Part shown: piece after piece, positions 29,057 through 62,714 of the stretch
How the letters are laid out: every line of letters starts with the position of its first letter
How positions within the stretch are numbered: position 1 is the stretch's first letter
Assembly: GCF_018327685.1 (NCBI RefSeq)
Contig: NZ_BNEL01000001.1
Span: 5,643,501 to 5,707,500, forward strand
Source: Streptomyces sp. TS71-3
Lineage (GTDB): Bacteria > Actinomycetota > Actinomycetes > Streptomycetales > Streptomycetaceae
Direction of reading: 5' to 3'
DNA: 64,000 nucleotides
The notes under the pieces: model-generated
What the model saw: the letters and a program-made list of their open reading frames with translations, nothing else
The model's database searches: none
What the model was told of the DNA's origin: nothing
Translations under genes and position numbers: made by a program

Positions 29057-29078
29057 GTGTCCGCCGGACACAACCTAG
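29057..29078. repeat. Partial terminal repeat abutting MITE copy 1
   Basis: Positions 29060-29078 match the right end of the MITE (29292-29310) at 18 of 19 bases and share its CTAG. The segment also contains the perfect palindrome GTGTCCG-C-CGGACAC at 29057-29071. It looks like the end of a second, otherwise lost, element joined directly to copy 1. Confidence 0.6.
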
Positions 29079-29310
29079 GTCGTGTCCGGCGGATCTTCGT
29101 GGATCAGCCTGCGGTGTCTGGTGCCGTGCATCGCAAGGCGGAGGATCGTCCTCGTACGGGGCGTACTCGGATGACTCCGACAACGCGGCGAGGTGCGGTG
29201 CTGGGGGCACTCCCCCACTGCCCTGAACGGGCGTGGGAGGTACCCCCACCCACGCCCTTCAGGCAGTGGGGGAGTCGCGGGCCCACGAAGATCCGCCGGA
29301 CACGACCTAG
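29075..29310. mobile_element. MITE-like element, copy 1 (236 bp)
   Basis: The element is bounded by a perfect 28-bp terminal inverted repeat (29075-29102 with 29283-29310) starting CTAGGTCGTGTCCGGCGG. It has no transposase gene. Inside, 29209-29275 forms a hairpin with about 27 paired bases and two single-base bulges. A second copy at 62479-62714 has the same length, about five differences, and the opposite orientation. The reverse strand near one end reads like the last codons of a transposase, so it may be a deletion derivative of a full insertion sequence. CTAG at each end could be a target duplication or part of the repeat. It lies between the convergent marR and PrmC-like genes. Confidence 0.88.
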
Positions 29311-30170
29311 TCCACGGCTGCCGCGGGCCGCGTGCCGATGACCACGGTCGCCCCGAGCTCCTCCTCGGCGGCCACCTCCGCCACGAGGCCGCCGGACGTG
29401 AAGGCCGCCACGGCCGACGGGGCCTGGCGCGTGCTGGTCTCGATCAGCACATGACCGCCGGGCGCCAGCCAGAGCGGCGCCCGCGCGGCCACCCGCCGCA
29501 GCACGTGGAGCCCGTCGGAGCCGCCGTCCAGGGCGACCGGCGGCTCGTGGACGCGGGCCTCCTGGGGGAGCAGGGCCATGTCGGCGGTGGGCACGTACGG
29601 CACGTTGGCGGTGAGGACGTCGACGCGACCGCGCAGCCCCTCGGGGAGCGGATCGAACAGATCGCCCTCGTGGACGGTACCGCCCGGCAGGTTGAGGCGG
29701 GCACACCGTACGGCCGCCGGGTCCACGTCGGCGGCGTGCAGCTCGGCGCCCGGCACGGCCGCGCCGAGCGCGGCGGCCAGCGCCCCCGAGCCGCAGCACA
29801 GATCGACGATCACCGCACGCGGCGGCGCGAGCGCGACGGCCCGGCCCACCAGGAACTCGGTTCGGCGCCGGGGCACGAAGACCCCGGGGGCCACGGTGAT
29901 CCGCAGGCCGCGGAACTCGGCCCAGCCGAGGACGTGCTCCAGCGGGAGGCCCCTGGCGCGCCGTTCCACCATGGCGGCCAGTTCGTCCGGCGTGCGGGCC
30001 TCGGCGAGCAGCAGGTCCGCCTCGTCCTCGGCGAAGACGCAGCCGGAGGCGCGCAGCACGCCGGTGATCGCCGCATGGCCGAGTCCGGGCGCGGCGGAAC
30101 GCGCCCCGGCGGCGCCTGAAGCGGGCGGACCGGAGGCGGCGGGGGAGGAGTGGGAGTGGGTTTCGGACAT
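29307..30170 (-). CDS. PrmC/HemK-like protein N5-glutamine methyltransferase paralogue
   Basis: 287 residues. The class I methyltransferase core has D-L-C-C-G-S-G at 123-129 as the SAM loop. The substrate motif is N-V-P-Y at 189-192 rather than N-P-P-Y, and F-V-P-R at 98-101 replaces the usual helical-domain junction. This corresponds to the actinomycete PrmC-related subgroup, whose substrate is unproven; canonical PrmC methylates the GGQ glutamine of release factors. The first 30 residues are low-complexity. The TAG stop lies within the terminal CTAG of the MITE, so the extreme C-terminus may have been reset by the insertion. A short upstream ORF precedes it. Confidence 0.78.
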   Translation of the reverse strand: MSETHSHSSPAASGPPASGAAGARSAAPGLGHAAITGVLRASGCVFAEDEADLLLAEARTPDELAAMVERRARGLPLEHVLGWAEFRGLRITVAPGVFVPRRRTEFLVGRAVALAPPRAVIVDLCCGSGALAAALGAAVPGAELHAADVDPAAVRCARLNLPGGTVHEGDLFDPLPEGLRGRVDVLTANVPYVPTADMALLPQEARVHEPPVALDGGSDGLHVLRRVAARAPLWLAPGGHVLIETSTRQAPSAVAAFTSGGLVAEVAAEEELGATVVIGTRPAAAVD

Positions 30171-30226
30171 GGGGCAGGAGAGCCTTTCGGGACGCCGAGG
30201 GGCGCTCCCCGTCTCTGTCCGAGGTC

Positions 30227-30295
30227 CTATGCCGAGGGGACCGGACGGTCGCGAGGCGGGAGCACCCGACCTGATACCGCGGTAATGGGGCTCAC
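30227..30295 (-). promoter_or_regulatory. Possible leader peptide upstream of the PrmC-like gene
   Basis: A perfect AGGAGG (30295-30300 on the minus strand) precedes a 22-codon frame ending with TAG at 30227, 56 bases before the methyltransferase start. The GTG at 30295 is too close to the AGGAGG. An in-frame ATT at 30286 has ideal spacing (8 bases), which would make a 19-residue peptide. Such short ORFs often control a downstream gene by attenuation. No function is proven. Confidence 0.35.
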
Positions 30296-30367
30296 CTCCT
30301 CAGTCGTCCAGTGTGTGGCCCGGCCACCCTACCCCAGCGTGCCCGGGCGCCAGGGGCGGGGCCGTGC

Positions 30368-31312
30368 TCAGCTCTGGTCGAACAGCGCGCTGACCGACTC
30401 GCCGTTGTGGATGCGCCGCACCGCCTCGGCGAGGGCCGGAGCGATGGACAGAACCGTCAGCTTCTCGGTGGTGTCGCCGTCCGGCACCGGCACCGTGTTC
30501 GTGCAGACGACCTCCAGCACGTCGGGCTGCTCGCCGAGCCGCCGCAGGGCGCCCGCCGCGAACAGCCCGTGGGTGCAGGCGATGCGGATCGAGCGCGGCC
30601 GCAGCTCGCGCAGCCGGTCCAGCAGCTCCAGCACGGTGCTGCCCTTGGCGATCTCGTCGTCCAGGACGATCACGTCCCGGTCGGCGACCTCACCGATGAC
30701 GGAGCTGATGCTGACCCGGTCGTCGGCGAACCGCTGCTTGGCACCGGCCGCCACCTGCGCCCCCAGCATTCGCGCGAAGGCCGCCGCCTCCTTGGCGTAG
30801 CCGAGGTCGGGGGAGACCACCGTGGTACGCGACAGGTCACGGCCCCTGAAGTGCCGCGCCAGCTCCCGCAGCGCGTGCAGGTGGTCCACCGGCACCGAGA
30901 AGAACCCGTGCACCTGCGGGGAGTGCAGGGCCATCGTCAGCACCCGGCCGGCCCCGGCCGCGACCAGCAGGTCGGCGACGAGCCGCCCGCCGAGCGAGAT
31001 CCGGGGGGCGTCCTTCTTGTCGGAGCGCGCGTAGGCGTAGTGCGGCATGACGACGGTGATCCGCCCCGCCGACGCGCCGCGGGCCGCGTCGCACATCATC
31101 AGCAGCTCCACGAGGTGCTCCTGTACCGGGGCGACGAGCGGCTGGATCAGGAAGACGTCGCGCTCGCGGCAGTTGGACTGCAACTGCACCTCGAGGCAGT
31201 CATTGGCGAAGCGGCTGGAGCGTACCGGGCTGAGCGGCACCTTGAGGTGCGCGCACACCTCCGCGGCCAGCTCCGGGTGGGCGCTGCCGCTGAACACGGT
31301 GATGTCACGCAA
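30368..31312 (-). CDS. prs: Ribose-phosphate pyrophosphokinase (PRPP synthetase)-like protein
   Basis: 314 residues, normal Prs length, with both phosphoribosyltransferase-fold halves. The ATP-binding part has H-Y-A-Y-A-R-S-D-K-K at 91-100 (canonical Y-A-R-Q-D-R-K) and His130 (A-L-H-S). The PRPP loop is D-D-E-I-A-K-G-S-T at 218-226 instead of the usual D-D-M-I-D-T-G-G-T. The flexible-loop K-R-R is K-Q-R. Canonical Prs makes PRPP from ribose-5-phosphate and ATP. The altered loops point to a paralogue with changed regulation or substrate rather than the housekeeping enzyme, though activity is likely kept. Confidence 0.8.
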   Translation of the reverse strand: MRDITVFSGSAHPELAAEVCAHLKVPLSPVRSSRFANDCLEVQLQSNCRERDVFLIQPLVAPVQEHLVELLMMCDAARGASAGRITVVMPHYAYARSDKKDAPRISLGGRLVADLLVAAGAGRVLTMALHSPQVHGFFSVPVDHLHALRELARHFRGRDLSRTTVVSPDLGYAKEAAAFARMLGAQVAAGAKQRFADDRVSISSVIGEVADRDVIVLDDEIAKGSTVLELLDRLRELRPRSIRIACTHGLFAAGALRRLGEQPDVLEVVCTNTVPVPDGDTTEKLTVLSIAPALAEAVRRIHNGESVSALFDQS

Positions 31313-31386
31313 GAACCGCTCCTCGACGCAGGTCCGTGATCGGCCGGACGCACGCCATGGTACTGACCGGCCGGAACCCGGCGTTT

Positions 31387-32136
31387 TCAGGATGCGCGTT
31401 CGTAGGCGAGCTGCGCGGCGGCCCGGACGGAGCCCCGGTGCAGGGGGCCATGGCCCGGCAGCAGGGTGTCGCCTTCCAGCTTCTCGATGATCCGCAGGGA
31501 CTCGCGTGTCCCGGCGCGGTCCTTGTCGAACATCACGGGCAGCAGCTGCGGGCCGCTCGTCCCCGATATGGCGTGGCCGCTGACGAGCGCGTCGCCGCTG
31601 ATCACCAGGCCGGCGTCGGGCAGGTGGTAGACGCTGTGGCCCGCGGTGTGCCCGGGGGTGAGCACCGGAACCGGCCGGCCGGGCAGGTCCAGGGGGCCGG
31701 GCGCGGGGAACGGCTGCGGGGAGCTCACCCGGACGTCACCGAGCCCGCCGGAGCGCACCGCGTGTACCGCCCAGGGCAGGACGCGCGGCCGCCACGCGTT
31801 GGCCAGGATCCGGCCGGCGGAGACCTGGTGGACGAACTCCCGCCGGGCGTGCGGCACTTCGGCCTCGTGCAGGTAGACCGGCGTGCCGTGGGCGGCGCTC
31901 AGGTACTCGACCGATCCCAGGTGGTCCGCGTGGCCATGGGTGACGAGGACGGCGCGTACGGACTCGGGGCGGTGCCCGAGGGACGCCAGCGATTCGAGCA
32001 GCAGGGCGCGGTCGCCGGGGTAGCCGGTGTCGATCAGGGTGACGTCGTCGCCCTCGGCGATGACGACCCAGTTGGTGTTGCTGCCGTGCACCAGATGCAC
32101 ACCGGCAGCAGCCTGGACGATGGTGTCTTCCCGCAT
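31387..32136 (-). CDS. MBL-fold metallo-hydrolase
   Basis: 249 residues. The metallo-beta-lactamase metal site is intact: T-H-G-H-A-D-H at 66-72 (His67, His69, Asp71, His72), T-P-G-H-T-A-G-H further on, G-D-A-L-V-S-G and the final P-G-H-G-P. No signal peptide, so it is cytoplasmic. Members include glyoxalase II, lactonases and arylsulfatase-like enzymes; the substrate cannot be chosen here. GGGAAGG precedes the ATG. It is transcribed in the same direction as the Prs-like gene but 74 bases before it, so the two may be co-transcribed. Confidence 0.85.
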   Translation of the reverse strand: MREDTIVQAAAGVHLVHGSNTNWVVIAEGDDVTLIDTGYPGDRALLLESLASLGHRPESVRAVLVTHGHADHLGSVEYLSAAHGTPVYLHEAEVPHARREFVHQVSAGRILANAWRPRVLPWAVHAVRSGGLGDVRVSSPQPFPAPGPLDLPGRPVPVLTPGHTAGHSVYHLPDAGLVISGDALVSGHAISGTSGPQLLPVMFDKDRAGTRESLRIIEKLEGDTLLPGHGPLHRGSVRAAAQLAYERAS

Positions 32137-32408
32137 GACCTTCCCGATGTGTCGAGCCCTGGCCCGGACAGGATCCCAAAGAGGTTAGAGGATCGGCGAT
32201 CCGCGCCGACGGGCGCCCCCCTGTTCCGACCGCCGGATCCGGCTGAAAGGGCAGGTCGGGTGGGCCACCCCGCTGTGGCATGATCCGCCCGGGACATCGG
32301 AGGGCCGTTCGACCGGGACCCGCGCCTGTGCGCCGCCGTCCCGGTGCCACGGCCTGCCCGCGCGCATGCCGCCCGTCCGCAAGCACACCGCAGCGAGGAA
32401 AGACCTCC

Positions 32409-32700
32409 ATGATCCAGGTGCTCTGGCTCGGCACCCTGCTCGGCGCCGGCGCGGCGCTGTCCGTCGGCCCGGTGTTCGTCACCATCATCCAGACCGCGGC
32501 CACCCGCGGCTTCGCCTCCGCGCTGCGCGTCATCCTCGGCTCCGCCACCGCCGACCTGGTGCTGCTCGTACCCGCCTTGGCGTTCGCCTGGCTGATCGCA
32601 GCCGTCGCTCAGGCGTCCTTCTGGGTCGGCCTGGCCGGGGCCGTCTGCTTCCTCTGGCTCGCGGTGGCGGCCGTCCGCGACGCCCGCCGCCTGTGGCGGG
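32409..32700 (+). pseudogene. Truncated LysE-family transporter
   Basis: The frame opens normally after GAGGAAAG and encodes about 97 residues of a LysE/RhtB exporter: L-W-L-G-T-L-L-G-A-G-A-A-L-S-V-G-P-V-F and three membrane segments up to D-A-R-R-L-W-R-G-R. At about 32700 homology stops abruptly and another gene, in a different frame, begins. A complete LysE protein has about 200 residues and six membrane segments, so this half cannot function. Confidence 0.75.
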
Positions 32701-33556
32701 GCCGTTCGGAGACTCGCCGGAAGTTCTGCTCCAGCAAGTGCGGAAGAACTCCGGCTACGTCGCCAAGTTGCTCGATGCCAAGAAGACGCTTTCGGAGCAG
32801 CGTCGCCTGCTGGTTATCGGCGGGTGGCTCTCCTTGCTGGGTGCGACGGTGCACATTGACCTGAACCAGGACTCGGCCGCGACGGCCAGATTGCAGACGT
32901 CGGCAATGCTGGCGCGTGAAGCGGGGCATCCCGATATCGAAGCCTGGTGTTTTGAGACCGAGGCGTGGCGAGTGCTCACCGCGGGCGACTACAAGCGCGC
33001 CGTGGAACTCTCCCGTGCCGCCCAGCGGATAGCTCCGAAGGGGACTTCCGTGCTGATCCAGGCAACTGCGCAAGAGGGCCGTGCTCATGCGCGGTTGGGG
33101 AATTCGCAAGAGACGTACTCCGCTGTTGAGCGCGTGCAGCAGATGTCTGATGCGCTCGGGAACTCCGACACACCCGAACACCATTACCGTTACGATCCGG
33201 AAAAGTCCGTTTCGTACACAGCGACAACGCTGGCGTGGCTCGGGGATGGCACGGCAGAGACCTACGCGCGTGAGGTAGTTGCGCGGCTCGGTCCCCGAGA
33301 CGACGTCTCTCGCTGGCCCAGGCGAGTTGCCTCGGCCCACATTGACCTGGCTCTCGCGCTGCTGTCTGCGAATCAGCACGATGAGGCGTGTGAATCGGCC
33401 GAGAAGGCGATCCTCAGCGGCAAGGTCGTGCCGTCGAACCACTGGCGTGCACTGGAAGTCGTGCGAGCAGTCGAACGCCGCGGCCTTCCCGAGGCTACGC
33501 GACTTCGGGAGGCGTACCAGGAGATGCGCCCGCCGAAGGAACTCACGCAGGACTGA
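32701..33556 (+). pseudogene. 5-prime-truncated TPR-containing regulator (XRE type)
   Basis: About 284 residues from the break point to the stop, reading P-F-G-D-S-P-E-V-L-L-Q-Q-V-R onward. It is the helical TPR half of the large Streptomyces family of XRE-type regulators, with paired helices such as A-M-L-A-R-E-A-G-H-P-D-I and A-V-E-L-S-R-A-A-Q-R. The DNA-binding N-terminal domain is missing. GC content is visibly lower than on either side, which suggests acquired DNA. It is joined out of frame to the LysE remnant. Confidence 0.72.
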
Positions 33557-33570
33557 GAGGAAGTGAGCCG

Positions 33571-33597
33571 ATGGTGAATACGATGTCTCCAAGCTGA
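33571..33597 (+). pseudogene. Start of a lost gene
   Basis: GAGAGGAAG precedes an ATG opening only eight codons (M-V-N-T-M-S-P-S) before TGA. Together with the preceding fragment it looks like the beginning of the next gene on the same acquired segment, cut at its 3-prime side. Confidence 0.3.
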
Positions 33598-33618
33598 CCG
33601 CCTGACGCGGTGCGAGAG

Positions 33619-34713
33619 TCAAGATCCCGGATCGGGCCCCCCGGCCGCGCCGAACGGCAACCCCCTAGCCCCCGCGGCGAAGCCGCCCCAGGCACCGGCG
33701 CCGGCCGCCGCAGGCTCCGCACAAGACCCCCGCACCACCAGCCGGGTCGGCAGCATCACCTGCCCCTCGCCGGGCTCGCGCCCACCGAGGAGGTCGAGCA
33801 GCATCTCCACCGCCCGCTGCCCCATGAGCTGCAACGGCTGCTCGATGGTGGTGAGCGCGGGCTCCACCATCGTGCTCTCGGGGATGTTGTCGAACCCGAT
33901 CACCGACAGGTCCTGAGGCACCCGCATGCCGAGGGTCAGGGCGGTCTCCATGGTGGCTATCGCGGTCACGTCGTTCGCCGCGAAGACGGCGGTGGGCCGC
34001 TGGGGGAGCGTCAGGAGCGCCCTGGCGGCGTTCGACGACTCGTGGGCCTCGTAGCCGGCGTTGCGCAGCAGGTCCGGGTCGAAGGGGATGCCGGCGGCCT
34101 TAAGCGCGCTGCGGTAGCCGGCCTCCCGCTGCCTGCTGGACTCCAGGTCCCTGGGGGGCCGGCCGAGGAAGCCGATGCGGCGGTGGCCGAGTTCCAGCAG
34201 GTGTTCCACGGCGAGGCGCGCCCCGCGGGCGTTGTCCGCCGCCACCGTCCAGCCGTCGTCGCCCCCGCTGTGCGGATCCACCGCGACCACCGGCGAGCCG
34301 ATGTCCCGGGTGGAGACGGTGGGCGTCACCAGTACCGCGCCGTCGATCAGCGTCCCCGACAGCCGCGACAGGTAGCGCCGTTCCCAGCCGACCCGCCCGC
34401 CGGCCTCCCCGCCGGTCGAGTACACGACCAGCTCGTATCCGGTGCCCTTGAGGCCGCGTGCCACGCCTTTCAGCAGCTCGGCGCTGTACGGCTCTATGGC
34501 CCACACCAGCACGCCGACGACGTTGGTGCGGTGGTTGCGCAGGCTCCGTGCGACCAGGCTCGACTCGTAGCCCAGTTCGTCGATGGCGGCGCGCACCCGC
34601 AGCAGGGTGTCCGCGGCCACTCCATGGCGATCGTTGAGCACCTTGGAGACGGTCGCTACCGAGACGCCCGCCTGCGCGGCGACCTCCCGGATGGTCACTC
34701 GGTTGCTCGTCAC
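33619..34713 (-). CDS. LacI-family transcriptional regulator
   Basis: 364 residues from GTG 34713, which gives V-T-S-N-R-V-T-I-R-E-V-A-A-Q-A-G, the canonical LacI helix-turn-helix start. The hinge helix is near 50, and a periplasmic-binding-protein-like sensor domain covers about 60-335 (G-F-D-N-I-P-E near the end). A Gly/Ala-rich tail closes the protein. It is divergent from a sugar ABC importer. Two overlapping palindromes lie 34 bases upstream and another before the importer, so it very likely represses the importer operon and itself until a sugar binds. Confidence 0.9.
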   Translation of the reverse strand: MTSNRVTIREVAAQAGVSVATVSKVLNDRHGVAADTLLRVRAAIDELGYESSLVARSLRNHRTNVVGVLVWAIEPYSAELLKGVARGLKGTGYELVVYSTGGEAGGRVGWERRYLSRLSGTLIDGAVLVTPTVSTRDIGSPVVAVDPHSGGDDGWTVAADNARGARLAVEHLLELGHRRIGFLGRPPRDLESSRQREAGYRSALKAAGIPFDPDLLRNAGYEAHESSNAARALLTLPQRPTAVFAANDVTAIATMETALTLGMRVPQDLSVIGFDNIPESTMVEPALTTIEQPLQLMGQRAVEMLLDLLGGREPGEGQVMLPTRLVVRGSCAEPAAAGAGAWGGFAAGARGLPFGAAGGPDPGS

Positions 34714-34746
34714 GGTCCGGATTCTACTGTCCTGTCCCGCCGCCAC

Positions 34747-34766
34747 CGATAACGTTATCGATAACG
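34747..34766. promoter_or_regulatory. Overlapping LacI-type operator palindromes
   Basis: Two perfect 14-bp palindromes overlap by eight bases: CGATAACGTTATCG at 34747-34760 and CGTTATCGATAACG at 34753-34766. LacI-family operators have this central CG and form. They sit 34 bases upstream of the lacI start, ideal for autorepression. Apart from this and the site at 35049, the 421-base divergent region shows nothing else. Confidence 0.65.
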
Positions 34767-35048
34767 ATTGACAAGTCCCGGGCGCCGCTTGCACGATGGC
34801 CGGGCGCCGGCGGTGAGAGGCCTTGCCGCAGGCGCGAGAGGCGTCAGGTGACACGTGTGCGGCGCCGGTCGGCCGGTCATCACTTCAGGGGTCGTGGTGG
34901 CGTGAACCGCCGGGGATCGCACGGGCCGAGGGCCCCGGGCGACGGAGGTTGGGGACGAATCCGATCAAGGGGGAAGCCGCTTACGGGAGTTGCAGCGCTC
35001 CGCCGTGATCCGCACTACCATCCGCAGGCGACCCCTGGGCGTGGTCCC

Positions 35049-35062
35049 GGAAAGCGCTTGCT
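35049..35062. promoter_or_regulatory. Second LacI-type operator, upstream of the ABC operon
   Basis: GGAAAGCGCTTGCT contains the palindrome AAGCGCTT (35052-35059), close to the classic LacI/CcpA-like core. It is about 75 bases before the binding-protein gene, where it could block that promoter. Confidence 0.5.
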
Positions 35063-35134
35063 GCAGCTGGTGCCGCGCCATCCCCATCCGACCCCCGGAC
35101 ACGACGACGTGGCCGGGGAAGAGAGGCGGACAGC

Positions 35135-36463
35135 ATGACGGCATCGGTCACCCCACGAAGGACCGTCCTCGCGGCGGGACTGGCCATCCTGTTCGGCAGT
35201 GCGGTGGCGGGCTGCGGCACCTCGGGACCCAAGCCCGGCGGCGCGGGAGGCTCCACCGACGGCGCGTCGGCGTGGATCCTCAGCGGCGTGACGGAGCAGA
35301 CCTTCCACAACACCTTCAACTCGTGGAACGACGCCCACCCCGATCAGAAGTTCGACGTCCAGGCCTTCGCCAACGACCCGTACAAGCAGAAGATCCGCAC
35401 CGCGGTCGGCGCGGGCCAGGCCCCCACCCTGATCTACGGCTGGGGCGGCGGCGTCCTGGAGTCCTACGTGCGGGCCAAGGCGGTGGAGGACCTGAGCGAC
35501 CTCGCCGCCGACGCCGAGGTGAAGGGCCGCTTCCTCTCCTCGGTCGCGAACGGCGGGAAGGTCGGCGGCAAGACGTACGCGCTGCCGAACAACGGCATCA
35601 AGCCGGTGATGATCTACTACAACAAGGAGCTCTTCGCCCAGATCGGTGCCGAGCCGCCGAAGACCTGGGACGAGCTGATGAGCCAGGTCGACGACTTCAA
35701 GCAGGCCAAGATCGCGCCGTTCACGGTGAGCGGCCAGGCCAAGTGGCCGCTGCTGCCGTGGCTCTCGTACCTGATGGACCGCATCGGCGGCCCCGGCGTG
35801 CTGGAGGACATCCTGGCCGGCAAGGCGAAGGCGTGGTCCGACCCGGCGGTGACCCAGGCGAACACCAAGATCCAGGAGCTGGTCGACGCCGGCGGCTTCG
35901 TGTCGGACTTCGCCTCCATCACCACCGACAGCGGCGCCGACGTGGCCCTGCTGTACACCGGCAAGGCCGCCATGACGCTGGCGCTGCCGTCCGCCTACCA
36001 GACCATCCAGCAGTCCGACCCGAAGTTCGTCTCGGACGGCAAGCTCGGCTACTTCCCCTTCCCGACGGTCTCCGGCGGGAAGGGCGACCCGGACGACGTG
36101 GTCGGCAACCCCTCCAACTACTGGTCGATCTCGGCGTCCGCCTCCGACGACGAGAAGAAGACCGCCCGCGCCTACCTGAAGGACGCTCTGCTCAAGGGCT
36201 CCTACATCGACGACCTGCTCAAGGACGGCAACGTGCCGCCGGTGGCCGATCTCGGCCCCCGGATCGCCAAGTCGAGCGATCCCGACTACTTCGACGCGGT
36301 CTACAGCATGACCGCGAAAGCCCCGAACTTCGCCCTCTCGCTGGACCAGGCGCTCGGCCCCAAGGCCGGCGACGCGGTGCTCACCAACCTCCAGCAGATC
36401 TTCCTCAAGGAGATCACCCCGGAGAAGTTCGCGGACAACATGAACGCCACCCTCTCCGGCTGA
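35135..36463 (+). CDS. ABC sugar importer, extracellular solute-binding lipoprotein
   Basis: 442 residues. A signal peptide ends in the lipobox A-V-A-G-C with Cys27 as the lipidation site. The rest is a family 1 solute-binding protein: F-N-S-W-N-D-A-H-P-D, Y-A-L-P-N-N-G-I-K-P-V-M-I-Y-Y-N-K-E-L-F, and T-W-D-E-L. It captures a sugar, probably an oligosaccharide given the cytoplasmic GH5 enzyme downstream. The ATPase subunit is not encoded here, as is usual in Streptomyces, where a shared MsiK-type ATPase serves many importers. Confidence 0.9.
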   Translation: MTASVTPRRTVLAAGLAILFGSAVAGCGTSGPKPGGAGGSTDGASAWILSGVTEQTFHNTFNSWNDAHPDQKFDVQAFANDPYKQKIRTAVGAGQAPTLIYGWGGGVLESYVRAKAVEDLSDLAADAEVKGRFLSSVANGGKVGGKTYALPNNGIKPVMIYYNKELFAQIGAEPPKTWDELMSQVDDFKQAKIAPFTVSGQAKWPLLPWLSYLMDRIGGPGVLEDILAGKAKAWSDPAVTQANTKIQELVDAGGFVSDFASITTDSGADVALLYTGKAAMTLALPSAYQTIQQSDPKFVSDGKLGYFPFPTVSGGKGDPDDVVGNPSNYWSISASASDDEKKTARAYLKDALLKGSYIDDLLKDGNVPPVADLGPRIAKSSDPDYFDAVYSMTAKAPNFALSLDQALGPKAGDAVLTNLQQIFLKEITPEKFADNMNATLSG

Positions 36464-36475
36464 AATCGAGTTGAC

Positions 36476-37399: not shown

Positions 37400-38304
37400 T
37401 GGCCACCACGACCACCCCGGCAGCGAGGTCCGGCACCCGGTTCGGACGGCCGGCGGCCCCGCCGCGCCGCCGCAGGGCGGGCACCCCCCGCAGGAAGCCC
37501 AACGTGCCCGCCGCGCTCGCCGGGTTCGTCTGGCTGGCCGTGATCATCCTGCCCGTCTACTACGTGGTCATCACCAGCCTGCGCGGCCAGGCCGGCTTCT
37601 TCTCCGGCAACCCGCTCGCGCCGACCCACGACCTCACCCTCGGCAACTACACGGAAGTCCTCGACAAGGGCTTCGGGACGTACTTCCTGAACAGCGTCAC
37701 GGTGACCACCGCCTCGGTGGCGCTGACCGTCGCCCTGTCCCTGATGGCCGCCTACGCGGTGGTGCGCGGGCGGGGCCGGCTGGTGCGCTCCGCCTTCTCG
37801 CTCTTCCTGCTGGGGCTCGCCATCCCCGTGCACGCCACGATCATCCCGCTCTACTACATGATCACGCGTGTGCACCTCTACGACAGCCTGCTCGCCCTGA
37901 TCCTGCCGTCCATCGGCTTCGCCGTGCCGGTCACCGTCCTCATCCTCGCGAACTTCATCCGGGACATCCCGCGCGAGCTCTTCGAGTCCATGCGCCTGGA
38001 CGGCGGCAACGACGCACGGATCCTCTGGCACCTCGTCGTCCCGCTGGCCCGCCCCGCCATCGTCACCGTCTCCATCTACGACGCCCTGCACGTCTGGAAC
38101 GGCTTCCTCTTCCCCCTGATCCTCACGCAGAGTCCCGGCCGGCGGGTGCTGCCGATGGCGCTGTGGACGTTCCAGGGCGAGTTCACCGTCAACGTCCCCG
38201 CGGTGCTCGCCGCCGTGGTGCTGTCCACCCTGCCGATGCTCGCCGCCTACCTCGTCGGGCGCCGCCACCTCATCCGCGGCCTGACCGCCGGATTCAGCCG
38301 GTGA
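37399..38304 (+). CDS. ABC sugar importer permease 2 (MalG type)
   Basis: 301 residues. A Pro/Arg-rich 35-residue head precedes six membrane segments. The EAA loop is F-E-S-M-R-L-D-G-G-N-D-A-R-I near 195. Coupled to permease 1 by a one-base overlap. Confidence 0.9.
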   Translation: MATTTTPAARSGTRFGRPAAPPRRRRAGTPRRKPNVPAALAGFVWLAVIILPVYYVVITSLRGQAGFFSGNPLAPTHDLTLGNYTEVLDKGFGTYFLNSVTVTTASVALTVALSLMAAYAVVRGRGRLVRSAFSLFLLGLAIPVHATIIPLYYMITRVHLYDSLLALILPSIGFAVPVTVLILANFIRDIPRELFESMRLDGGNDARILWHLVVPLARPAIVTVSIYDALHVWNGFLFPLILTQSPGRRVLPMALWTFQGEFTVNVPAVLAAVVLSTLPMLAAYLVGRRHLIRGLTAGFSR

Positions 38305-56289: not shown

Positions 56290-57116
56290 GGGGGTCCTTC
56301 CGTCATCGCGTGGGAGCCGGCCGTGGGGGAGGCCGCCCGACCGCCGGCGTTGGTGGCCTTCCAGCCGAGCTGGGTGGAGATCTCACGGGCCGCCTCGACC
56401 ACGCGGGGCGCGCAGTCGCGGACGAACTGCGGGGTGAAGCGGGAGCGCGGGCCGCACACGGACACCGAGCCGCGGACGTCGCCGTCGAGGCCGAACACGG
56501 GGGCGGCGACGGAGCCGGCGTCGGCCTGGCGCTCGCCCTGGGAGCTGGCGTATCCGAGCTCCCTGACCGCGGCCAGTTCGGTGCGGAGCGTCTCGGGGTC
56601 GGTGATGGTCCGGTCGGTGAGCACGGCGAGTTCCGCGGTGAGGATCTCCTCGCGCCGCCGCTGCGGCAGGAAGGCGAGGAGGCACTTGCCGGAGCTGCCG
56701 GCGTGCAGGGGGAACCTGCGGCCGAGTTCGACGGTCATCTTCACCTCGTGGGTGCTGACGATCTGGTCGACGTAGGCGCGCCCACCGGGCACGGGGGCCG
56801 TGAGCGTCACCGTCTCCTGCGTCTGGAGCTGGAGCCGCCGAAGTGCTTCGGCGGCGACGGCTCGCAGGTCGAACTCGCGCAGGGCGCGGGCTCCGAGCGC
56901 GGCGGCGGTCGGGCCGAGACGGTACAGGCGCGTCCGCTCGTCGAGGACCACCATGCCGCGGGCGACGAGCGTCTGCAGGATGCGGTGCACCACGGCTTTG
57001 CTGAGGCCGAGTTCGCGTGCGATCCAGGACACCCCGAGGTCGTCGGGTGCGTCGGTGAAGAGCAGGAGCACGTCGATCACTCGCCCTGCGGTCTCGGTTC
57101 CGGGTCGGGTCGTCAT
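56286..57116 (-). CDS. IclR-family transcriptional regulator
   Basis: 276 residues. The winged helix-turn-helix spans about 12-70 (V-S-W-I-A-R-E-L-G-L-S-K-A-V-V-H-R-I-L-Q-T-L) and the effector-binding domain about 90-250 (H-A-G-S-S-G-K-C-L-L-A-F). The gene heads the minus-strand operon and is divergent from the plus-strand operon. Two related operator-like repeats lie in the gap. It is expected to control both operons in response to the pathway substrate or an intermediate. Confidence 0.9.
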   Translation of the reverse strand: MTTRPGTETAGRVIDVLLLFTDAPDDLGVSWIARELGLSKAVVHRILQTLVARGMVVLDERTRLYRLGPTAAALGARALREFDLRAVAAEALRRLQLQTQETVTLTAPVPGGRAYVDQIVSTHEVKMTVELGRRFPLHAGSSGKCLLAFLPQRRREEILTAELAVLTDRTITDPETLRTELAAVRELGYASSQGERQADAGSVAAPVFGLDGDVRGSVSVCGPRSRFTPQFVRDCAPRVVEAAREISTQLGWKATNAGGRAASPTAGSHAMTEGPP

Positions 57117-57178
57117 GGGCCCATTCTCTTCCGCCTCCCTTGGCCGCGATCCGGAGCCTCCCCGAATCGGACGCTTCT

Positions 57179-57208
57179 GCTGTACCGCTCAATGGAACGC
57201 CAGGGAAG
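57179..57208. promoter_or_regulatory. Operator-like repeat A (IclR proximal)
   Basis: A 30-bp sequence identical at 26 positions to repeat B at 57322-57351, in the same orientation. It contains TACCG-N5-TGGAA, a weakened form of the B palindrome. It lies 63 bases upstream of the iclR start. Confidence 0.6.
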
Positions 57209-57321
57209 CATTGACGCCGGGCCCGGTCAAGGGGTGATGCCCAGGAAATATCGGCGTTACATGGATCTTGCCGGGAGGTATTGACGTTCTTTTGCCAGCG
57301 CTGGAATCATCGAGTCCGTTA

Positions 57322-57351
57322 GCTGTTCCGCTGAACGGAACGCTAGGGAAG
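57322..57351. promoter_or_regulatory. Operator-like repeat B (prpD proximal)
   Basis: It contains the perfect palindrome TTCCG-N5-CGGAA at 57326-57340, a common IclR-type operator form. Its right end merges into the ribosome-binding site GGAAGGAGG of the prpD-like gene, so binding here would block transcription or initiation. Confidence 0.65.
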
Positions 57352-57362
57352 GAGGTGGGCAG

Positions 57363-58805
57363 GTGCCCCCCGATCCGCCCGGAGCAGATCCGCACCGGCC
57401 GGGCGACGCCAAGGAAGCAGCCCGGCGCCACACCGCGGACCTCGGGTGCTGGGCCGCCCGGCTCTCCTGGTCCGACGTGCCCGACAGCGTCCGCGAGCGC
57501 CTCTCGCTGGTCCTGCTCGACACCCTGGCCGTGACGCTCGCCGGTGCCCGCACCGAGGGCCAGCGCCGCATCCGGGCCGCCTGGCCCACGCCCCCGGGGG
57601 ACGCCCCCGTGCTCGGCGCGGGTGTCCTGACGCAGGCCGACACCGCCGCATACCTGAATGCGACCGCCCTGGTGTGCAGCGAGCTCGACGAGGGCGGGAA
57701 GTACGCCAAGGGCCACCCCGCGGGGCACGCGTTCCCCGCGATCCTCGCCCTGGCCGCATCGATGGGCTCCCCCGGGGAAGCGACCGCGCGGGCCCTGCTC
57801 GCCGGCTACGAGGTCGCCGCGCGCTTCGGCCGCGCCACCTCGCTCGCTCCCGGCGTCCACCCGCACGGGAACTGGGGGGTGACCGGTGCCGCCGCGGGCT
57901 GCGCGATCCTGCTCGGCCTGCCCGCATCCCAGGTCGCGGCGGCTGTCGACACCGCCGCGGCACTGCCGGTCGCCGGGCACTTCGACTCCGCGCTCGACGG
58001 CCACCGCGCCCGGGACGCCTGGATGGCCGCGGCCGCGGTGAACGGGCTGGCGGCGGCGCGGCTCGCCGCCGCCGGCGTCGTGCGCAACACCGGCACGGCC
58101 GCCCTGTCGCTCGGCCGGCTCCTCGGCGACTTCGACGCGCCGGTGCTCACCGGCGCGCTGGGCGAGGACTGGCAGATCGAGCACAACTACTTCAAGCGGC
58201 ACGCCGCGTGCTCGTACACGCACCCGGCCGCCGACCTCGCCCTGGAACTGCGCGCCCGGCACCTTTCGACCAGGACGGGCGCCCAGGTGGTCGACGCCGT
58301 GACGGAGGTCCGCGTGGACACGCACGCGCTGGCCGCACCGCTGAACCGCACGCGCTGGGACGGCGGCCTGGCCGCGATGTTCTCCATCCCCTACACCGTC
58401 GCCACCGCTCTGCTGGACGGCGCGGTGGCCCCCGGCACGGCGGACGCGACCGAGGCCGACCGGCCCGACATCCACGCCCTGGCCCGCAAGGTCGCGGTCG
58501 CCGAGGACCCGGCACTGACCGCTCGCCTGCCGCGCGAGCGCCCCACCCGCCTGACCGCGGTCCTCGAAGGCGGCCGGCGGGTGGAGCTCCGCGCACCGGG
58601 CCCCGTCGGGGACAGCGACCACCATCCGTTCACACCGCACTCGCTCGCCGCGGTGCTCGCCGATCTGCTGGGCGACGGCGCCCTGGTGGACCGGCTGCGG
58701 CGCACGGCGGACGACCTGCCGGCGGCCGGCGACGTGGGACCGCCGCTGCGAGAGCTCGCCCGCCTCACCACCGGCACGGCAGCGGCACAAGGAGGCATCG
58801 CATGA
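57363..58805 (+). CDS. MmgE/PrpD family protein, copy B
   Basis: 480 residues from GTG 57363 after AAGGAGG. It has the same fold as copy A but is diverged: A-Y-L-N-A-T-A-L-V-C-S-E-L-D-E-G-G-K replaces the H-S-L-D-F-D-D region, followed by G-H-P-A-G-H-A-F-P-A-I-L-A. The E-H-N-Y-F-K-R-H-A-A-C segment replaces K-P-Y-P-C-N. Two unlike PrpD proteins in one locus suggest two steps, for example an epimerisation and a dehydration or decarboxylation. Next gene overlaps (ATGA). Confidence 0.83.
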   Translation: MPPDPPGADPHRPGDAKEAARRHTADLGCWAARLSWSDVPDSVRERLSLVLLDTLAVTLAGARTEGQRRIRAAWPTPPGDAPVLGAGVLTQADTAAYLNATALVCSELDEGGKYAKGHPAGHAFPAILALAASMGSPGEATARALLAGYEVAARFGRATSLAPGVHPHGNWGVTGAAAGCAILLGLPASQVAAAVDTAAALPVAGHFDSALDGHRARDAWMAAAAVNGLAAARLAAAGVVRNTGTAALSLGRLLGDFDAPVLTGALGEDWQIEHNYFKRHAACSYTHPAADLALELRARHLSTRTGAQVVDAVTEVRVDTHALAAPLNRTRWDGGLAAMFSIPYTVATALLDGAVAPGTADATEADRPDIHALARKVAVAEDPALTARLPRERPTRLTAVLEGGRRVELRAPGPVGDSDHHPFTPHSLAAVLADLLGDGALVDRLRRTADDLPAAGDVGPPLRELARLTTGTAAAQGGIA

Positions 58806-59437
58806 GAATCCTCTCCGTCACCCCGATACGGGTGGGCGCCGGCGAACTGGCCCGGCGCCGCGACCGCTACCGGCGCCTGGCGCCGCCCGGCGTGGAACTC
58901 GTCCTTGAGGAGGTGGGCGAGGACGCACCCGAGCAGTTCGCGACCCCCGACGACATCGCCGCCTCGACCGCCTCGGTCACCGCGGCACTGGCCGCGGCCC
59001 CGGACGGGGACCTCGCCTGCCGGATGCCGGACTGCGTGCTCGACCCCGCCGTCCCCGTGGAACCGGACGGCGCGGCGGTCCCGACCGTCGGCATGCTGCG
59101 GCTCAGCGCGGCGCACCTCGTCGCCAGCGGGCGCACCTTCGGCGCCGTCACCCGCAACCACGCCATCGGCGAGGCGCTCGCCCGGCGGGTCGAGGAGTAC
59201 GGGTACGGGCCCTGGTTCGCCGGTGTGATCGTGCTCGACCTCGCCTTCGACGCCATCCCCGACACCGGCCGCTGGAACGGCGCCGTGCGCGCCGCGCTCG
59301 ACGGCTTCGCCGCCCGGGGCGTGACGGCCGTGATCAACGGCTGCTCGGCCGTCGACACCGACGCGCCGCACCCGGTGGAGCTCGTGGACCCGGCCGCGCT
59401 GGCCCTGCGGCTGCTCGCTGCGGGAGCCCGGCCGTGA
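58802..59437 (+). CDS. Asp/Glu racemase superfamily protein
   Basis: 211 residues. It starts M-R-I-L-S-V-T-P-I-R-V, and N-G-C-S-A-V-D near 180 retains a conserved cysteine of this superfamily. The first catalytic Cys region is replaced by D-L-A-C-R-M-P-D-C. The superfamily includes aspartate and hydantoin racemases and maleate cis-trans isomerase. With a hydantoinase-like amidohydrolase in the same operon, hydantoin- or carbamoyl-type racemisation, or maleate-type isomerisation, are both possible. Confidence 0.65.
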   Translation: MRILSVTPIRVGAGELARRRDRYRRLAPPGVELVLEEVGEDAPEQFATPDDIAASTASVTAALAAAPDGDLACRMPDCVLDPAVPVEPDGAAVPTVGMLRLSAAHLVASGRTFGAVTRNHAIGEALARRVEEYGYGPWFAGVIVLDLAFDAIPDTGRWNGAVRAALDGFAARGVTAVINGCSAVDTDAPHPVELVDPAALALRLLAAGARP

Positions 59438-60822
59438 CCGGGCAGGCGGAGGACTTCGCCGTCGACCTGGTGGTGGCGGGAGCCGGCGGCGGCCTCGCCG
59501 GGGCGCTCAGGGCGGCCGAGCTCGGCCTCAGCGTGCTCGTCGTGGACCCCGACGAGCAGTTCCTGCGCGGCAACAACACCTCGATGTCCACCGCGATGAT
59601 CCCCGGCGCGGGCTCGCGCTGGCAGCGCGCCGCCGGGGTCGAGGACGGCCCCGCCCGCTTCCTCGCCGACATCACCGCGAAGACCCACGGCACGGCCGAC
59701 CCGGCGCTCGCGGCCGCCCTGGCCAGGGTCAGCGCGCCGCTGGTGGAGTGGCTGGCCGACGCGGTGGACGTGCCGCTGCACCTGGTGCGCGACTTCAGCT
59801 ATCCGGGCCACAGCGCCGACCGGCTGCACACCGTCGAGGGGCGCCACGGATCGGCCCTCCTGCGCCACCTGCACGAACGGGCCCGGCGCTCCCCCTCGAT
59901 CGACCTGCTGGTCCCCGCGCGCCTCGTGGACGTCGAGCGGGGCGCGGAGGGCGGGGTCACCGGCGCGGTCGTCGAGTACCCGGGCGGCCGCCGGGAGGCC
60001 ATCGCCACCCGGGCCGTGCTGCTGGCGACCAACGGGTACGGCGCGAACCGCGAGCTGGTGGCGGAGAACATACCGGACATCTCGGCCGCCGATTACCATG
60101 GCGGTCAGTTCTCCACCGGAGACGGCCTGGCGATCGGGCTGCGGCACGGCGCGCGGTCCGCCTTCATGGACGCCTACCAGGGCCATGCGGCCCTCGCGCG
60201 CCGCTCGCGGACGCTGGTGGGCTGGGCCACGATCATGCACGGCGCGATCATGGTCGACGAGGGTGGCGAGCGGTTCGGGGACGAGACCACCGGCTACTCG
60301 GAGTACGCGGCGGCACTCGCCGCCCGTCCCGGTGCGCACGGCTGGATCGTCCTGGACCGCCGCATCCACGACCTGTGCCTGTCGTTCGCCGACTTCCGCC
60401 AGACCGTGGAGGCGGGGGCGGTGGTGTGGGCGGAGGATCCCGCCGCGCTGGCGGAGCGCGTCGGCTGTGACGCGAAGGCGCTCGCGGAGTCGGTGTCGGA
60501 ACAGGTAGCCCTGGCCACCGGGGCGGCCGGGGGAGACCGGTTCGGCAGGACCTTCCTCGAGGAGCCGTTGCAGGGGCCGTTCGCGGCCGTCGAGGTGATC
60601 CCCGCCCTGTTCCACACCCAGGGCGGCCTCGTGGTCGACGGCGAGGCCCGCGTCCTCGGCGGGGACGGGGTGCCGATCCGCGGCCTCTTCGCCTCGGGCG
60701 GGGCGGCGCACGGCATCTCCGGACGGGGCGCCGACGGGTATCTGGCGGGCAACGGCCTGCTTCCGGCACTCGGACTCGCCTGGCAGGCGGCCACCGCCCT
60801 GTCCGGCACCACTGCACACTGA
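59434..60822 (+). CDS. FAD-dependent oxidoreductase, fumarate-reductase flavoprotein type
   Basis: 462 residues, GTG start overlapping the previous stop (GTGA). The FAD site is G-A-G-G-G-L-A-G-A at 16-24, followed by V-V-D-P. The C-terminal F-A-S-G-G-A-A-H-G-I-S-G-R-G-A-D-G-Y-L-A-type G-rich segment is characteristic of the fumarate reductase / ketosteroid dehydrogenase group. N-N-T-S-M-S-T-A-M-I-P-G lies in the substrate region. It probably introduces or removes an activated C=C bond. Confidence 0.83.
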   Translation: MTGQAEDFAVDLVVAGAGGGLAGALRAAELGLSVLVVDPDEQFLRGNNTSMSTAMIPGAGSRWQRAAGVEDGPARFLADITAKTHGTADPALAAALARVSAPLVEWLADAVDVPLHLVRDFSYPGHSADRLHTVEGRHGSALLRHLHERARRSPSIDLLVPARLVDVERGAEGGVTGAVVEYPGGRREAIATRAVLLATNGYGANRELVAENIPDISAADYHGGQFSTGDGLAIGLRHGARSAFMDAYQGHAALARRSRTLVGWATIMHGAIMVDEGGERFGDETTGYSEYAAALAARPGAHGWIVLDRRIHDLCLSFADFRQTVEAGAVVWAEDPAALAERVGCDAKALAESVSEQVALATGAAGGDRFGRTFLEEPLQGPFAAVEVIPALFHTQGGLVVDGEARVLGGDGVPIRGLFASGGAAHGISGRGADGYLAGNGLLPALGLAWQAATALSGTTAH

Positions 60823-60838
60823 GAGAGGCACAGGCACC

Positions 60839-62305
60839 ATGACCGAACTGGATCTGCTGATCAAGAACGTGCGTCTGGTGAAGCACGACGCCCCGGACAT
60901 CCCCACCACGGACATCGGCGTCAAGGACGGCGTGTTCCACCGCATCGCCCCCGGCATCCCGGCCTCCGGCGCCGCCCAGGTGGTCGACGGCAAGGGGCTG
61001 CTCGCCTTCCCCGGCGTCGTCGACGCCCACCAGCACTGGGGGATCTACAACCCGCTGTCGGACGACACGGTGACCGAGAGCCGCGCCTGCGCCCAGGGCG
61101 GTGTGACGACGGCCCTCACGTACATGCGGACCGGGCAGTACTACATGAACCGCGGCGGCAGCTACGACGAGGTCTTCCCGCTCGTCCTCGACGCATCCGA
61201 GGGCCGGTCGCACGTCGACTACGGCTTCCACCTCGCGCCCATGCAGAAGTCGCACATCGACGAGATCCCCGAGCTCATCGCCCGCTTCGGCGTCACCTCG
61301 TTCAAGGTCTTCATGTTCTACGGCAGCCACGGCCTGCACGGGCGCTCCGCCGACCAGAACTCCTTCCTCATGATCCCGCCCGGTGAGCGCTACGACCTGG
61401 CGCACTTCGAGTTCGTGATGCGCGGCGTGCAGGCGGCACGCAAGGCGTACCCGGAGCTCGCGGACAGCATCTCGCTCTCCCTGCACTGCGAGACCGCCGA
61501 GATCATGACCGCGTACACCAGACTGGTCGAGGAGGAGGGCAGGCTCGACGGCCTCGCCGCCTACAGCGCCTCGCGCCCGCCGCACTCGGAGGGACTCGCG
61601 GTCACCATCGCGAGCTACCTCGCGGCCGAGACGAACCTGCCGAACATCAACCTGCTCCACCTGTCGTCGCGCAAGGCGATCGAGGCCGCGATGCTGATGG
61701 CGAAGACGTTCCCCCAGGTCGACTTCCGCCGCGAGGTGACGATCGGCCACCTGCTCGCGAACATCGAGACCGCCTCCGGCGTCGGCGGCAAGGTCAACCC
61801 CCCGCTGCGCCCGCAGGAGGACGTGGACGCGCTGTGGGAGCACCTGGTGGCCGGCGACGTCGACTGGGTCGTCAGCGACCACGCCTGCTGCAAGGAGGAG
61901 ACGAAGTTCGGCGACCCCAAGAGCGACGTGTTCGCGGCCAAGTCCGGGTTCGGTGGCACGGAGTACCTGCTGCCGGGCCTCGCGGGCGCGGCACCCGCCC
62001 ACGGCCTGCCGCTGCAGAAGGTCGCGGAGCTCACCTCATGGTCCCCGGCACAGCGCTTCGGGCTGTCCACGAAGGGGCAGATCGCCGAGGGCTACGACGC
62101 CGACCTGGCACTCGTCGACCCGTCGGCGTCCTGGACCGTGGACGCCGCCGACTCGGAGTCCGCACAGGAGTACACGCCGCTGCAGGGCCTGGAGGTGGGC
62201 GCACGCGTGGAGTCCACGTTCCTGCGCGGCACGCAGGTCTACGGCGACCGCAAGGTCATGGGCGCCCCCCGGGGCCGCTACCTGTCGCGGCCCACCAAGC
62301 GGTGA
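60839..62305 (+). CDS. Dihydropyrimidinase/hydantoinase-like cyclic amidohydrolase
   Basis: 488 residues. A binuclear metal site is visible: His64-X-His66 in V-D-A-H-Q-H-W-G, a carboxylatable Lys near 156 (S-F-K-V-F-M-F-Y-G), His near 216 (S-L-H-C-E-T), His near 275 (L-L-H-L-S-S) and Asp near 346 (V-V-S-D-H-A). This set defines cyclic-amide hydrolases such as hydantoinase, dihydropyrimidinase and allantoinase. The closing residues W-S-P-A-Q-R-F-G and K-G-Q-I-A-E-G-Y-D-A-D fit. It likely opens a ring early in the pathway. Confidence 0.88.
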   Translation: MTELDLLIKNVRLVKHDAPDIPTTDIGVKDGVFHRIAPGIPASGAAQVVDGKGLLAFPGVVDAHQHWGIYNPLSDDTVTESRACAQGGVTTALTYMRTGQYYMNRGGSYDEVFPLVLDASEGRSHVDYGFHLAPMQKSHIDEIPELIARFGVTSFKVFMFYGSHGLHGRSADQNSFLMIPPGERYDLAHFEFVMRGVQAARKAYPELADSISLSLHCETAEIMTAYTRLVEEEGRLDGLAAYSASRPPHSEGLAVTIASYLAAETNLPNINLLHLSSRKAIEAAMLMAKTFPQVDFRREVTIGHLLANIETASGVGGKVNPPLRPQEDVDALWEHLVAGDVDWVVSDHACCKEETKFGDPKSDVFAAKSGFGGTEYLLPGLAGAAPAHGLPLQKVAELTSWSPAQRFGLSTKGQIAEGYDADLALVDPSASWTVDAADSESAQEYTPLQGLEVGARVESTFLRGTQVYGDRKVMGAPRGRYLSRPTKR

Positions 62306-62397
62306 GGTCCCGCAGCCCGGCGGATCAGATCGAACGGGGGAGCGGCGCGCGGCGGCCGGGGACGGGGGGCCGGGTGGCCCACCGCCCCGGCGTCTTC

Positions 62398-62457
62398 GGC
62401 GACCCGTCCGCCGGCGACGCGTCCTGCTGCGACCCGTCCTCCAGCGACCCGTCCTCC
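62398..62457. repeat. 15-bp tandem repeat, four units
   Basis: Degenerate units around GCGACCCGTCC lie at 62398-62412, 62413-62427, 62428-62442 and 62443-62457, between the amidohydrolase stop and MITE copy 2. The rest of this gap (62306-62478) shows nothing. Confidence 0.65.
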
Positions 62458-62478
62458 CGAGGATCCCGCCGGCCGGCC

Positions 62479-62714
62479 CTAGGTCGTGTCCGGCGGATCT
62501 TCGTGGGCCCGCGACTCCCCCACTGCCTGAAGGGCGTGGGTGGGGGTACCTCCCACGCCCGTTCAGGGCAGTGGGGGAGTGCCCCCAGTACCGCACCTCG
62601 CCGCGTTGTCGGAGTCATCCGGGTACGCCCAGTACGAGGATGATCCTCCGCCTTGCGATGCACGGCACCAGACGCCGCAGGCTGATCCACGAAGATCCGC
62701 CGGACACGACCTAG
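62479..62714. mobile_element. MITE-like element, copy 2 (236 bp, inverted relative to copy 1)
   Basis: It has the same 28-bp terminal inverted repeats and length as 29075-29310, about 98 percent identical after reverse complementing. The internal hairpin is at 62514-62580. Like copy 1 it lies between convergent genes (amidohydrolase + and MFS -). CTAG at 62711-62714 supplies the MFS stop codon. No transposase is encoded, so it would need one in trans. Confidence 0.88.

What the first reader, a model, noticed from the sequence alone, without database searches (positions are those of the whole stretch)
29075..62714. Two 236-bp MITE-like copies with perfect 28-bp terminal repeats in opposite orientation
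29075-29310 and 62479-62714 have equal length, identical terminal repeats and only about five internal differences, 33 kb apart and inverted to each other. Near-identity implies recent movement or gene conversion, so an active transposase of a matching family may exist elsewhere in the genome. Recombination between the copies would invert the whole 33-kb segment, including the importer, STAND and catabolic loci.
Basis: seen in the sequence. Interest (0 to 1): 0.7.

Follow-up and report, generated by a model that had tools for sequence, protein, structure and literature searches.

The report
Jumping hairpin element with RNA core
The two repeats are copies of a short mobile hairpin present more than forty times in this Streptomyces-like genome; it lands at CTAG sites, often exactly on gene stop codons, shares its ends with insertion sequences found in other species, and carries a core that looks like a conserved folded RNA.

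Summary
Observation confirmed: 29075-29310 (+) and 62479-62714 (-) are both 236 bp, differ at 5 positions and have identical 28-bp inverted ends. They belong to a family with at least 44 two-ended copies in this 9.79-Mb genome: 34 of 230-238 bp, 7 of 169-170 bp lacking a nested hairpin, 3 variants. Target is CTAG/YTAR with an inferred TA duplication. In 24 of 44 copies, both window copies included, the flanking TAG is a neighbouring gene's stop codon, against 11 of 70 control CTAGs. IS5-family insertion sequences with the same or nearly the same 21-bp end exist in other species of the genus, but no such transposase was found here. The unexpected part: across species the ends differ while the core persists. 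In 22 aligned elements 40 of 57 pairs show two-sided compensatory change, G-U exceeds A-C 118 to 7 in the core, and two bulges are nearly invariant. One end type resembles IS630, others IS5. Best reading: a MITE carrying a selected structured RNA, mobilised in trans by whichever CTAG-targeting transposase its ends match. RNA function is untested. A resident active transposase is not supported; inversion is untested.

The parts
29075..29310 (+). Copy 1 (element proper 29078-29307 if the duplication is TA)
62479..62714 (-). Copy 2, inverted, 5 substitutions from copy 1
29075..29102 (+). Left 28-bp terminal repeat, copy 1 (begins with target CTA)
29283..29310 (-). Right 28-bp terminal repeat, copy 1 (ends with target TAG)
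62479..62506 (+). Terminal repeat of copy 2 (low-coordinate end)
62687..62714 (-). Terminal repeat of copy 2 (high-coordinate end)
29101..29204 (+). Conserved structured core, copy 1; nearly invariant strands around 29128-29145 and 29177-29192
62585..62688 (-). Conserved structured core, copy 2
29209..29275 (+). Nested palindromic hairpin present in the 236-bp form, absent from the 169-bp form
62514..62580 (-). Same nested hairpin in copy 2
29307..30170 (-). Methyltransferase-domain gene (HemK/PrmC-like by eye) whose stop codon TAG (29307-29309) lies in the CTAG of copy 1
   Evidence: Pfam PF05175 above cut-off; best 80 relatives in other actinobacteria 54-74% identical
62711..63943 (-). MFS transporter gene whose stop codon TAG (62711-62713) lies in the CTAG of copy 2
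   Evidence: Pfam PF07690 above cut-off
29050..29078 (+). Probable collapsed older element: two end halves head to head, abutting copy 1
   Evidence: sequence

Best explanation
A non-autonomous DNA transposon (MITE). Shown: many near-identical copies, fixed ends, a CTAG/YTAR target, the same ends on IS5-family insertion sequences in other species, no such transposase found in this genome, frequent landing exactly at TAG stop codons, and a core conserved across species as a base-paired structure. Inferred: an IS5-type transposase acting in trans cut at the ends and inserted the element at YTAR, duplicating TA; this helper was later lost or never resident. Because the element starts with G after TA (CTA|GGTC...GACC|TAG), insertion at a TAG stop recreates the stop, so such insertions should be harmless and survive. 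The interior would be read out as RNA when the upstream gene is transcribed past its stop; selection keeps one long hairpin with two near-invariant bulges (AAG, CAA), through G-U pairs on one strand. Its most likely role is as a 3'-UTR hairpin that ends or trims the transcript, possibly with a partner binding the bulges; that role is a guess. The core is modular: it occurs with the ends of different CTAG-targeting transposases (IS5-type and, by end similarity, IS630-type), so it can change driver when one is lost.
For: Copies and ends. Target: 31 of 44 copies CTAG on both sides, 3 others built of CTAG, TTAG or CTAA, 9 with one flank departing from CTAG by one or two bases, 1 with a damaged end. 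Donor type: L198 (946 bp, both ends identical over 26 bp, of which 21 match the element exactly); L213 (965 bp) and L206 with one mismatch in the end; the two transposase halves of L206 match NCBIfam NF033580 IS5 above cut-off (137.9 and 137.7 bits, cut-off 110) and Pfam PF13340 and PF01609. Absent here. Stop codons: 24 of 44 against 11 of 70 control CTAGs, Fisher p 2e-5; of 25 coding frames running into a copy, 24 have the TAG in frame. RNA: 96.1% of cells paired against 77.3% in shuffles; 40 of 57 pairs with two-sided change; 0 of 500 shuffles reach any of the five measures; slid controls 34-45% paired. Strand: 37 of 37 elements fold better on the core strand (mean 24 kcal/mol); a strand-neutral self-alignment gives 288 G-T against 84 A-C, G-T in excess in 37 of 37. 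Modularity: L082/L089 cores 94% identical, ends 30%; no core was found inside the insertion sequences, only beside three of them.
Against: No expression data, no helper in the genome, no empty site. The strand bias is inherited, so 37 of 37 is not 37 independent events; the structure was derived from the same alignment. Ends must match for transposition whatever happens at RNA level. Orientation relative to the gene whose stop is used is not significantly biased (16 sense, 7 antisense, 1 undetermined, p 0.09), which gives no support to a strand-specific 3'-UTR role. Core and end similarity still correlate weakly (rho 0.22). Stop-codon calls rest on a GC-position heuristic, and the control CTAGs come from fetched loci, not a random sample. 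IS630 likeness rests on one left end (28 of 31 bases) and 10 of the first 11 bases of the right end, read by eye.
Confidence: 0.72

Rival explanations
1. An ordinary MITE: the palindromic arms stay matched because hairpin template switching or gene conversion repairs one arm from the other, and the core is merely old; no RNA function.
For: Ends match well in many families; palindromes are prone to such correction (general knowledge); a collapsed remnant (29050-29078) suggests hairpin-driven change; orientation to genes is not significantly biased.
Against: Arm correction is strand-symmetric and removes wobble, yet G-U exceeds A-C (118 to 7 in the core; 288 to 84 strand-neutral). The bulges with their short flanking helices are the most conserved columns while the outer stems vary. 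Columns 67-68/107-108 (read by eye from the alignment) switch between GA/GA, CC/GG and GC/GC.
Confidence: 0.25
2. An internally deleted copy of one IS5 element that once lived in this genome.
For: Shared 21-bp end with IS5-family elements of other species.
Against: In the insertion-sequence loci searched with the model the core lies beside, not inside, the insertion sequence (3 loci: L168, L177, L188), and the same core carries unrelated ends in other species.
Confidence: 0.07
3. Not mobile: a conserved terminator or RNA hairpin repeated by chance or by recombination.
For: Long hairpin, z -12.5, often at gene ends.
Against: At least 44 copies in different places with exact ends and a fixed target, and insertion sequences with the same ends.
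Confidence: 0.02

Closest known systems
IS5-family insertion sequences, NCBIfam NF033580 type (DUF4096 plus DDE domain, two overlapping frames)
   Same: Same 21-bp end (exact in L198 and L197, one mismatch in others) and CTAG flanks; presumed donor of transposase
   Different: They carry a transposase and no core; found in other species, not here
ERIC/IRU and other TA-ended enterobacterial MITEs (PMC2229807, passages read)
   Same: 127-bp intergenic repeat, TA at the ends, co-transcribed with genes, RNA conformation reported to affect mRNA stability
   Different: No sequence relation tested; different length and hosts; interchangeable ends were not mentioned in the passages read
Correia/NEMIS elements (PMC2229807 and PMC10969869, passages read)
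   Same: TIR-bounded repeats transcribed with genes; RNase III cleavage at the ends reported
   Different: Neisseria; no sequence relation tested
GTAG-tagged REPs (PMC3733652, abstract start and one passage read)
   Same: Their ends often supply a TAG stop to flanking ORFs
   Different: 20-40 bp palindromes, against 159-238 bp here with 25-bp inverted ends
IS630-family element with CTAG ends in this genome (L064)
   Same: Left end 28 of 31 bases like the ends of elements L089/L141 in genome G012
   Different: Its ends differ from those of the window copies; helper role unproven

Membership tests
MITE | Short (under about 500 bp, recalled), multi-copy, no transposase gene | tested here: met
   159-238 bp, 44 two-ended copies; too short to hold a transposase gene
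MITE | Terminal inverted repeats shared with an autonomous element | tested here: met
   21 bp identical to the IS5-family element L198 of another species; no such transposase in this genome
MITE | Target-site duplication | tested here: inconclusive
   TA inferred from variant flanks; no empty site available (nearest relatives of the neighbouring gene 74% identical or less)
MITE | Movement by the partner transposase | not testable with these tools
   needs a transposition assay
IS5 (as donor) | Transposase of IS5 type | tested here: met
   NF033580 above cut-off for both halves of L206 and for L174
IS5 (as donor) | YTAR/CTAG target (recalled as an IS5 trait) | tested here: met
   CTAG flanks of L198 and L174
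Known Rfam RNA family | Score above a family's gathering cut-off | tested here: not met
   0 matches in the window and in 20 loci; for L082 the best weak match is mir-1397, 21.4 bits against cut-off 70, E 0.035, taken as chance
Structured RNA | Compensatory change and one-strand wobble pairs | tested here: met
   with the ancestry caveat
Structured RNA | Transcribed and folded in cells | not testable with these tools
   no expression data
REP/BIME with RAYT | REP-type palindrome with a Y1 transposase partner | not tested
   set aside because of long TIRs, paired CTAG flanks and a DDE partner

The most novel reading that the evidence does not exclude
A new family of mobile structured RNA in Streptomyces and relatives: the selected unit is the RNA core, which survives by being attached to the ends of successive CTAG-targeting DDE transposases (IS5 and IS630 types), lands at TAG stop codons where it is tolerated, and acts in the 3' UTR or in trans through its two near-invariant bulges.
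Probability: 0.35. Interest if true: 0.82.

Novelty: new variant of a known kind. Interest (0 to 1): 0.6.

Why it matters
MITEs are usually described as decayed copies of one insertion sequence. Here the interior is what persists and the ends are what changes, the pairing evolves like an RNA, and insertion spares the host by rebuilding stop codons. If the RNA reading holds, it is an RNA family not in Rfam 15, with DNA matches in 27 of 60 sampled relatives (the weakest of these may be chance), and it gives a concrete system for asking why a transposon would conserve an RNA. For genome reading it also explains one class of hairpins beside Streptomyces stop codons.

Tried and rejected
Resident helper: searches of this genome with PF13359, PF13358, PF01609, PF13586 and an IS5 transposase half found no element with these ends; the 502-aa and 417-aa elements have other ends and a duplication I read by eye as 8 bp around CTAG. 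A transposase beside a core in G005 (L092/L111) first looked like a donor, but the element only lies next to it. Rfam: nothing above cut-off. Phages: one weak hit to the hairpin part. Plasmids: 84 records (67 Streptomyces) matched at E up to 10, none over 80% of the query. Empty site: no close relative. SD-like and kink-turn-like readings of the bulges were considered and dropped because variants in the alignment break them. Gene-orientation heuristic: 12 convergent, 22 codirectional, 2 divergent, 8 undetermined of 44 copies; 68 control CTAGs: 7 convergent, 29 codirectional, 15 divergent, 12 undetermined, 5 inside; too rough to lean on (it misplaces copy 1). Literature: listings showed no paper on such an element in Streptomyces; only openly licensed PMC papers are held.
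Full report
THE OBSERVATION. Both copies are 236 bp, inverted to each other, differ at five positions and share a perfect 28-bp terminal repeat. The window is contig 1, 5643501-5707500, of a 9.79-Mb, three-contig genome, window GC 73%; that it is Streptomyces or close to it is my inference from size, GC and related records. The 21-bp end CTAGGTCGTGTCCGGCGGATC occurs 93 times with up to two mismatches, the reversed control never. Among fetched loci 44 elements have both ends: 34 of 230-238 bp, 7 of 169-170 bp, and three variants (L051, 202 bp; L052 and L053, 159 bp, with most of the core missing). The 34 full copies differ by 2.3% on average, two pairs being identical, so spread was recent. Flanks are CTAG on both sides in 31 of 44; three copies with TTAG or CTAA flanks place a TA duplication inside YTAR; 9 have one flank departing from CTAG by one or two bases and one has a damaged end.

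THE NESTED HAIRPIN. The 236-bp form is the 169-bp form plus a 67-bp palindrome. Hairpins 96-97% identical to it lie in another element family of this genome with quite different ends (L036-L039). In other species short palindromes, mostly TGGGGG...GGGGGAG, sit at several positions inside related elements: 9 of the 11 longer elements that I picked have such an insertion. This looks like a second, smaller palindromic repeat that inserts into the first.

WHERE IT LANDS. Copy 1 supplies the CTAG that holds the TAG stop of a methyltransferase gene (29307-30170, minus); copy 2 does the same for an MFS transporter gene (62711-63943, minus). By a GC-position heuristic 24 of 44 copies abut a gene whose stop is the flanking TAG, against 11 of 70 other CTAGs in fetched DNA of this genome (Fisher p 2e-5); of 25 coding frames running into a copy, 24 have the TAG in frame. 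CTAG is rare here: 7 in the window, four of them ends of these two copies, against 154 expected from base composition and 35 from a Markov estimate. Because the element begins with G after TA, insertion rebuilds the stop. Whether this is targeting or survival of harmless insertions I cannot separate. GTAG-type REPs are reported to supply TAG stops too (PMC3733652, one passage read).

THE DRIVER. In this genome no matching transposase was found with the four families and the one protein tried. In 392 genomes of the genus the pattern CTAGGYCGTGTCCGGCNGAT occurs in 14, this one included. Among these, L198 (946 bp, genome G343) and L213 (965 bp, G295) have such ends on both sides of IS5-type transposase frames; L206 (G064) has the two overlapping frames intact, though its far end was not found; L197 and L199 look alike by eye at their starts, far ends not found either. 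Both halves of the L206 protein match NF033580, IS5 family. L174 (G044) is a 1033-bp IS5 element with a related end. The frames of L198 and L213 are interrupted, so those copies may be dead.

ENDS CHANGE, CORE STAYS. The first 133 bases of copy 1 find matches in 28 of 61 genomes (this one included), in 4 of 14 genera; at most 14 candidates per genome were scored. I extracted 66 elements with a script; 36 passed two filters (end match score 14 or more, length 160-182 bp) and, with the 169-bp form of this genome (L048), make the set of 37 (35 distinct); 30 were left out. Ends differ between species (for example GGGGGTTTCGTTTGG, AAGGGCTGTCCCG, GGCCGTCTCTTTCGG, GTGCCGTGACCGG) while the core is recognisable: L082 and L089 are 94% identical in the core and 30% in the ends; other pairs have like ends and unlike cores (overall the two still correlate weakly, rho 0.22). 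The L089 ends match the left end of an IS630-type element of this genome at 28 of 31 bases and its right end at 10 of the first 11. A model search found an intact element with our ends in a further species (L195, G080). In the 30 loci fetched for IS5-type transposases it found three elements (L168, L177, L188), each abutting what I read as the end of the insertion sequence, not inside it; L174, L176, L197, L198, L199, L206 and L213 gave no hit.

THE CORE BEHAVES LIKE RNA. For alignment A3 I gave 22 of the 35 distinct elements, dropping by hand nine near-duplicates and four that align poorly or have odd length (L092, L093, L100, L105); all of these 13 are in the set of 37. The consensus is one long hairpin. 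In it 96.1% of 1230 cells pair (shuffles 77.3%), 40 of 57 pairs show two-sided change (shuffles 23.2), none of 500 shuffles reaches any measure, and sliding by one to three columns drops pairing to 34-45%. Most conserved are an AAG bulge and a CAA bulge with their short flanking helices. G-U pairs outnumber A-C pairs 118 to 7 in the core and 28 to 9 in the ends; all 37 elements fold better on the core strand, by 24 kcal/mol on average (5.7 at least, L093). A test that does not favour either strand gives 288 G-T to 84 A-C, with G-T in excess in 37 of 37. Shared ancestry inflates these counts, and the structure came from the same alignment. Arm-to-arm correction of a DNA palindrome would not explain a one-strand wobble bias or conserved unpaired bases; selection on an RNA would. 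Copy 1 itself folds at -178.5 kcal/mol, z -12.5; its reverse strand at -160.6, z -11.6. No Rfam family is reached.

AGAINST THE RNA READING. Orientation relative to the gene whose stop is used is 16 sense, 7 antisense, 1 undetermined (p 0.09), so there is no clear strand preference. There are no expression data. A weak Rfam resemblance to a microRNA precursor family (mir-1397, E 0.035, far below its cut-off) I take as chance.

INVERSION. Two 98%-identical inverted repeats 33 kb apart could recombine, but the genome has dozens of such copies and no sister strain was available; nothing here bears on it.

LITERATURE. Delihas 2007 (PMC2229807, passages) describes ERIC and other small mobile repeats with RNA hairpins acting on mRNA. 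A 2024 review of prokaryotic MITEs (PMC10969869, passages) contains neither the word Streptomyces nor actinobacteria in its main text. The listings of seven searches showed no description of this element; the library holds only openly licensed papers, so prior description cannot be excluded.

VERDICT. Element, family and target: solid. Donor type: well supported, from other species. RNA selection: probable. Function of the RNA: open.

Noticed in passing
29050-29078: A probable collapsed older element, two end halves head to head, abuts copy 1; hairpin deletion may leave such stubs.
   Followed up: partly
L112, L113, L115, L035 (this genome): Two other insertion-sequence families also insert at CTAG: 2 of 5 copies of the 502-aa element sit in the CTAG at an end of this element, and 2 of 3 copies of the 417-aa element in front of a solo end stub, so the elements may act as landing pads.
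   Followed up: partly
L015, L026, L045 (this genome): Three copies of the element share the same outer flank (TGTATTGCCCTGTGAGG...), an unidentified repeated sequence abutting their CTAG.
   Followed up: no
L035, L115, L117, L118, L033 (this genome): Solo copies of the first 15 bases of the end (TAGGTCGTGTCCGGC) followed by unrelated DNA, five in the genome; more than base composition predicts by a hand estimate made in no call. Origin unclear.
   Followed up: partly
L036-L039 (this genome): A second element family with ends AGGGGTCCTTGCACTATGAGCG or close to it shares the nested hairpin and a core-like stretch.
   Followed up: partly
L087, L125, L133, L134, L139, L140, L161 (other genomes): Short TGGGGG...GGGGGAG-like palindromes inserted at different positions inside the elements: a second, smaller repeat.
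   Followed up: partly
L194, L208, L214, L217, L223 (G097): The same IS5-type end begins repeats with an apparently unrelated palindromic interior, so other passengers may use these ends too.
   Followed up: no
L188 (G004) 1128-2387: A further IS5-type element with perfect CTAGAGCGTGTCTC ends, abutted by a core-bearing element that shares its CTAG.
   Followed up: partly
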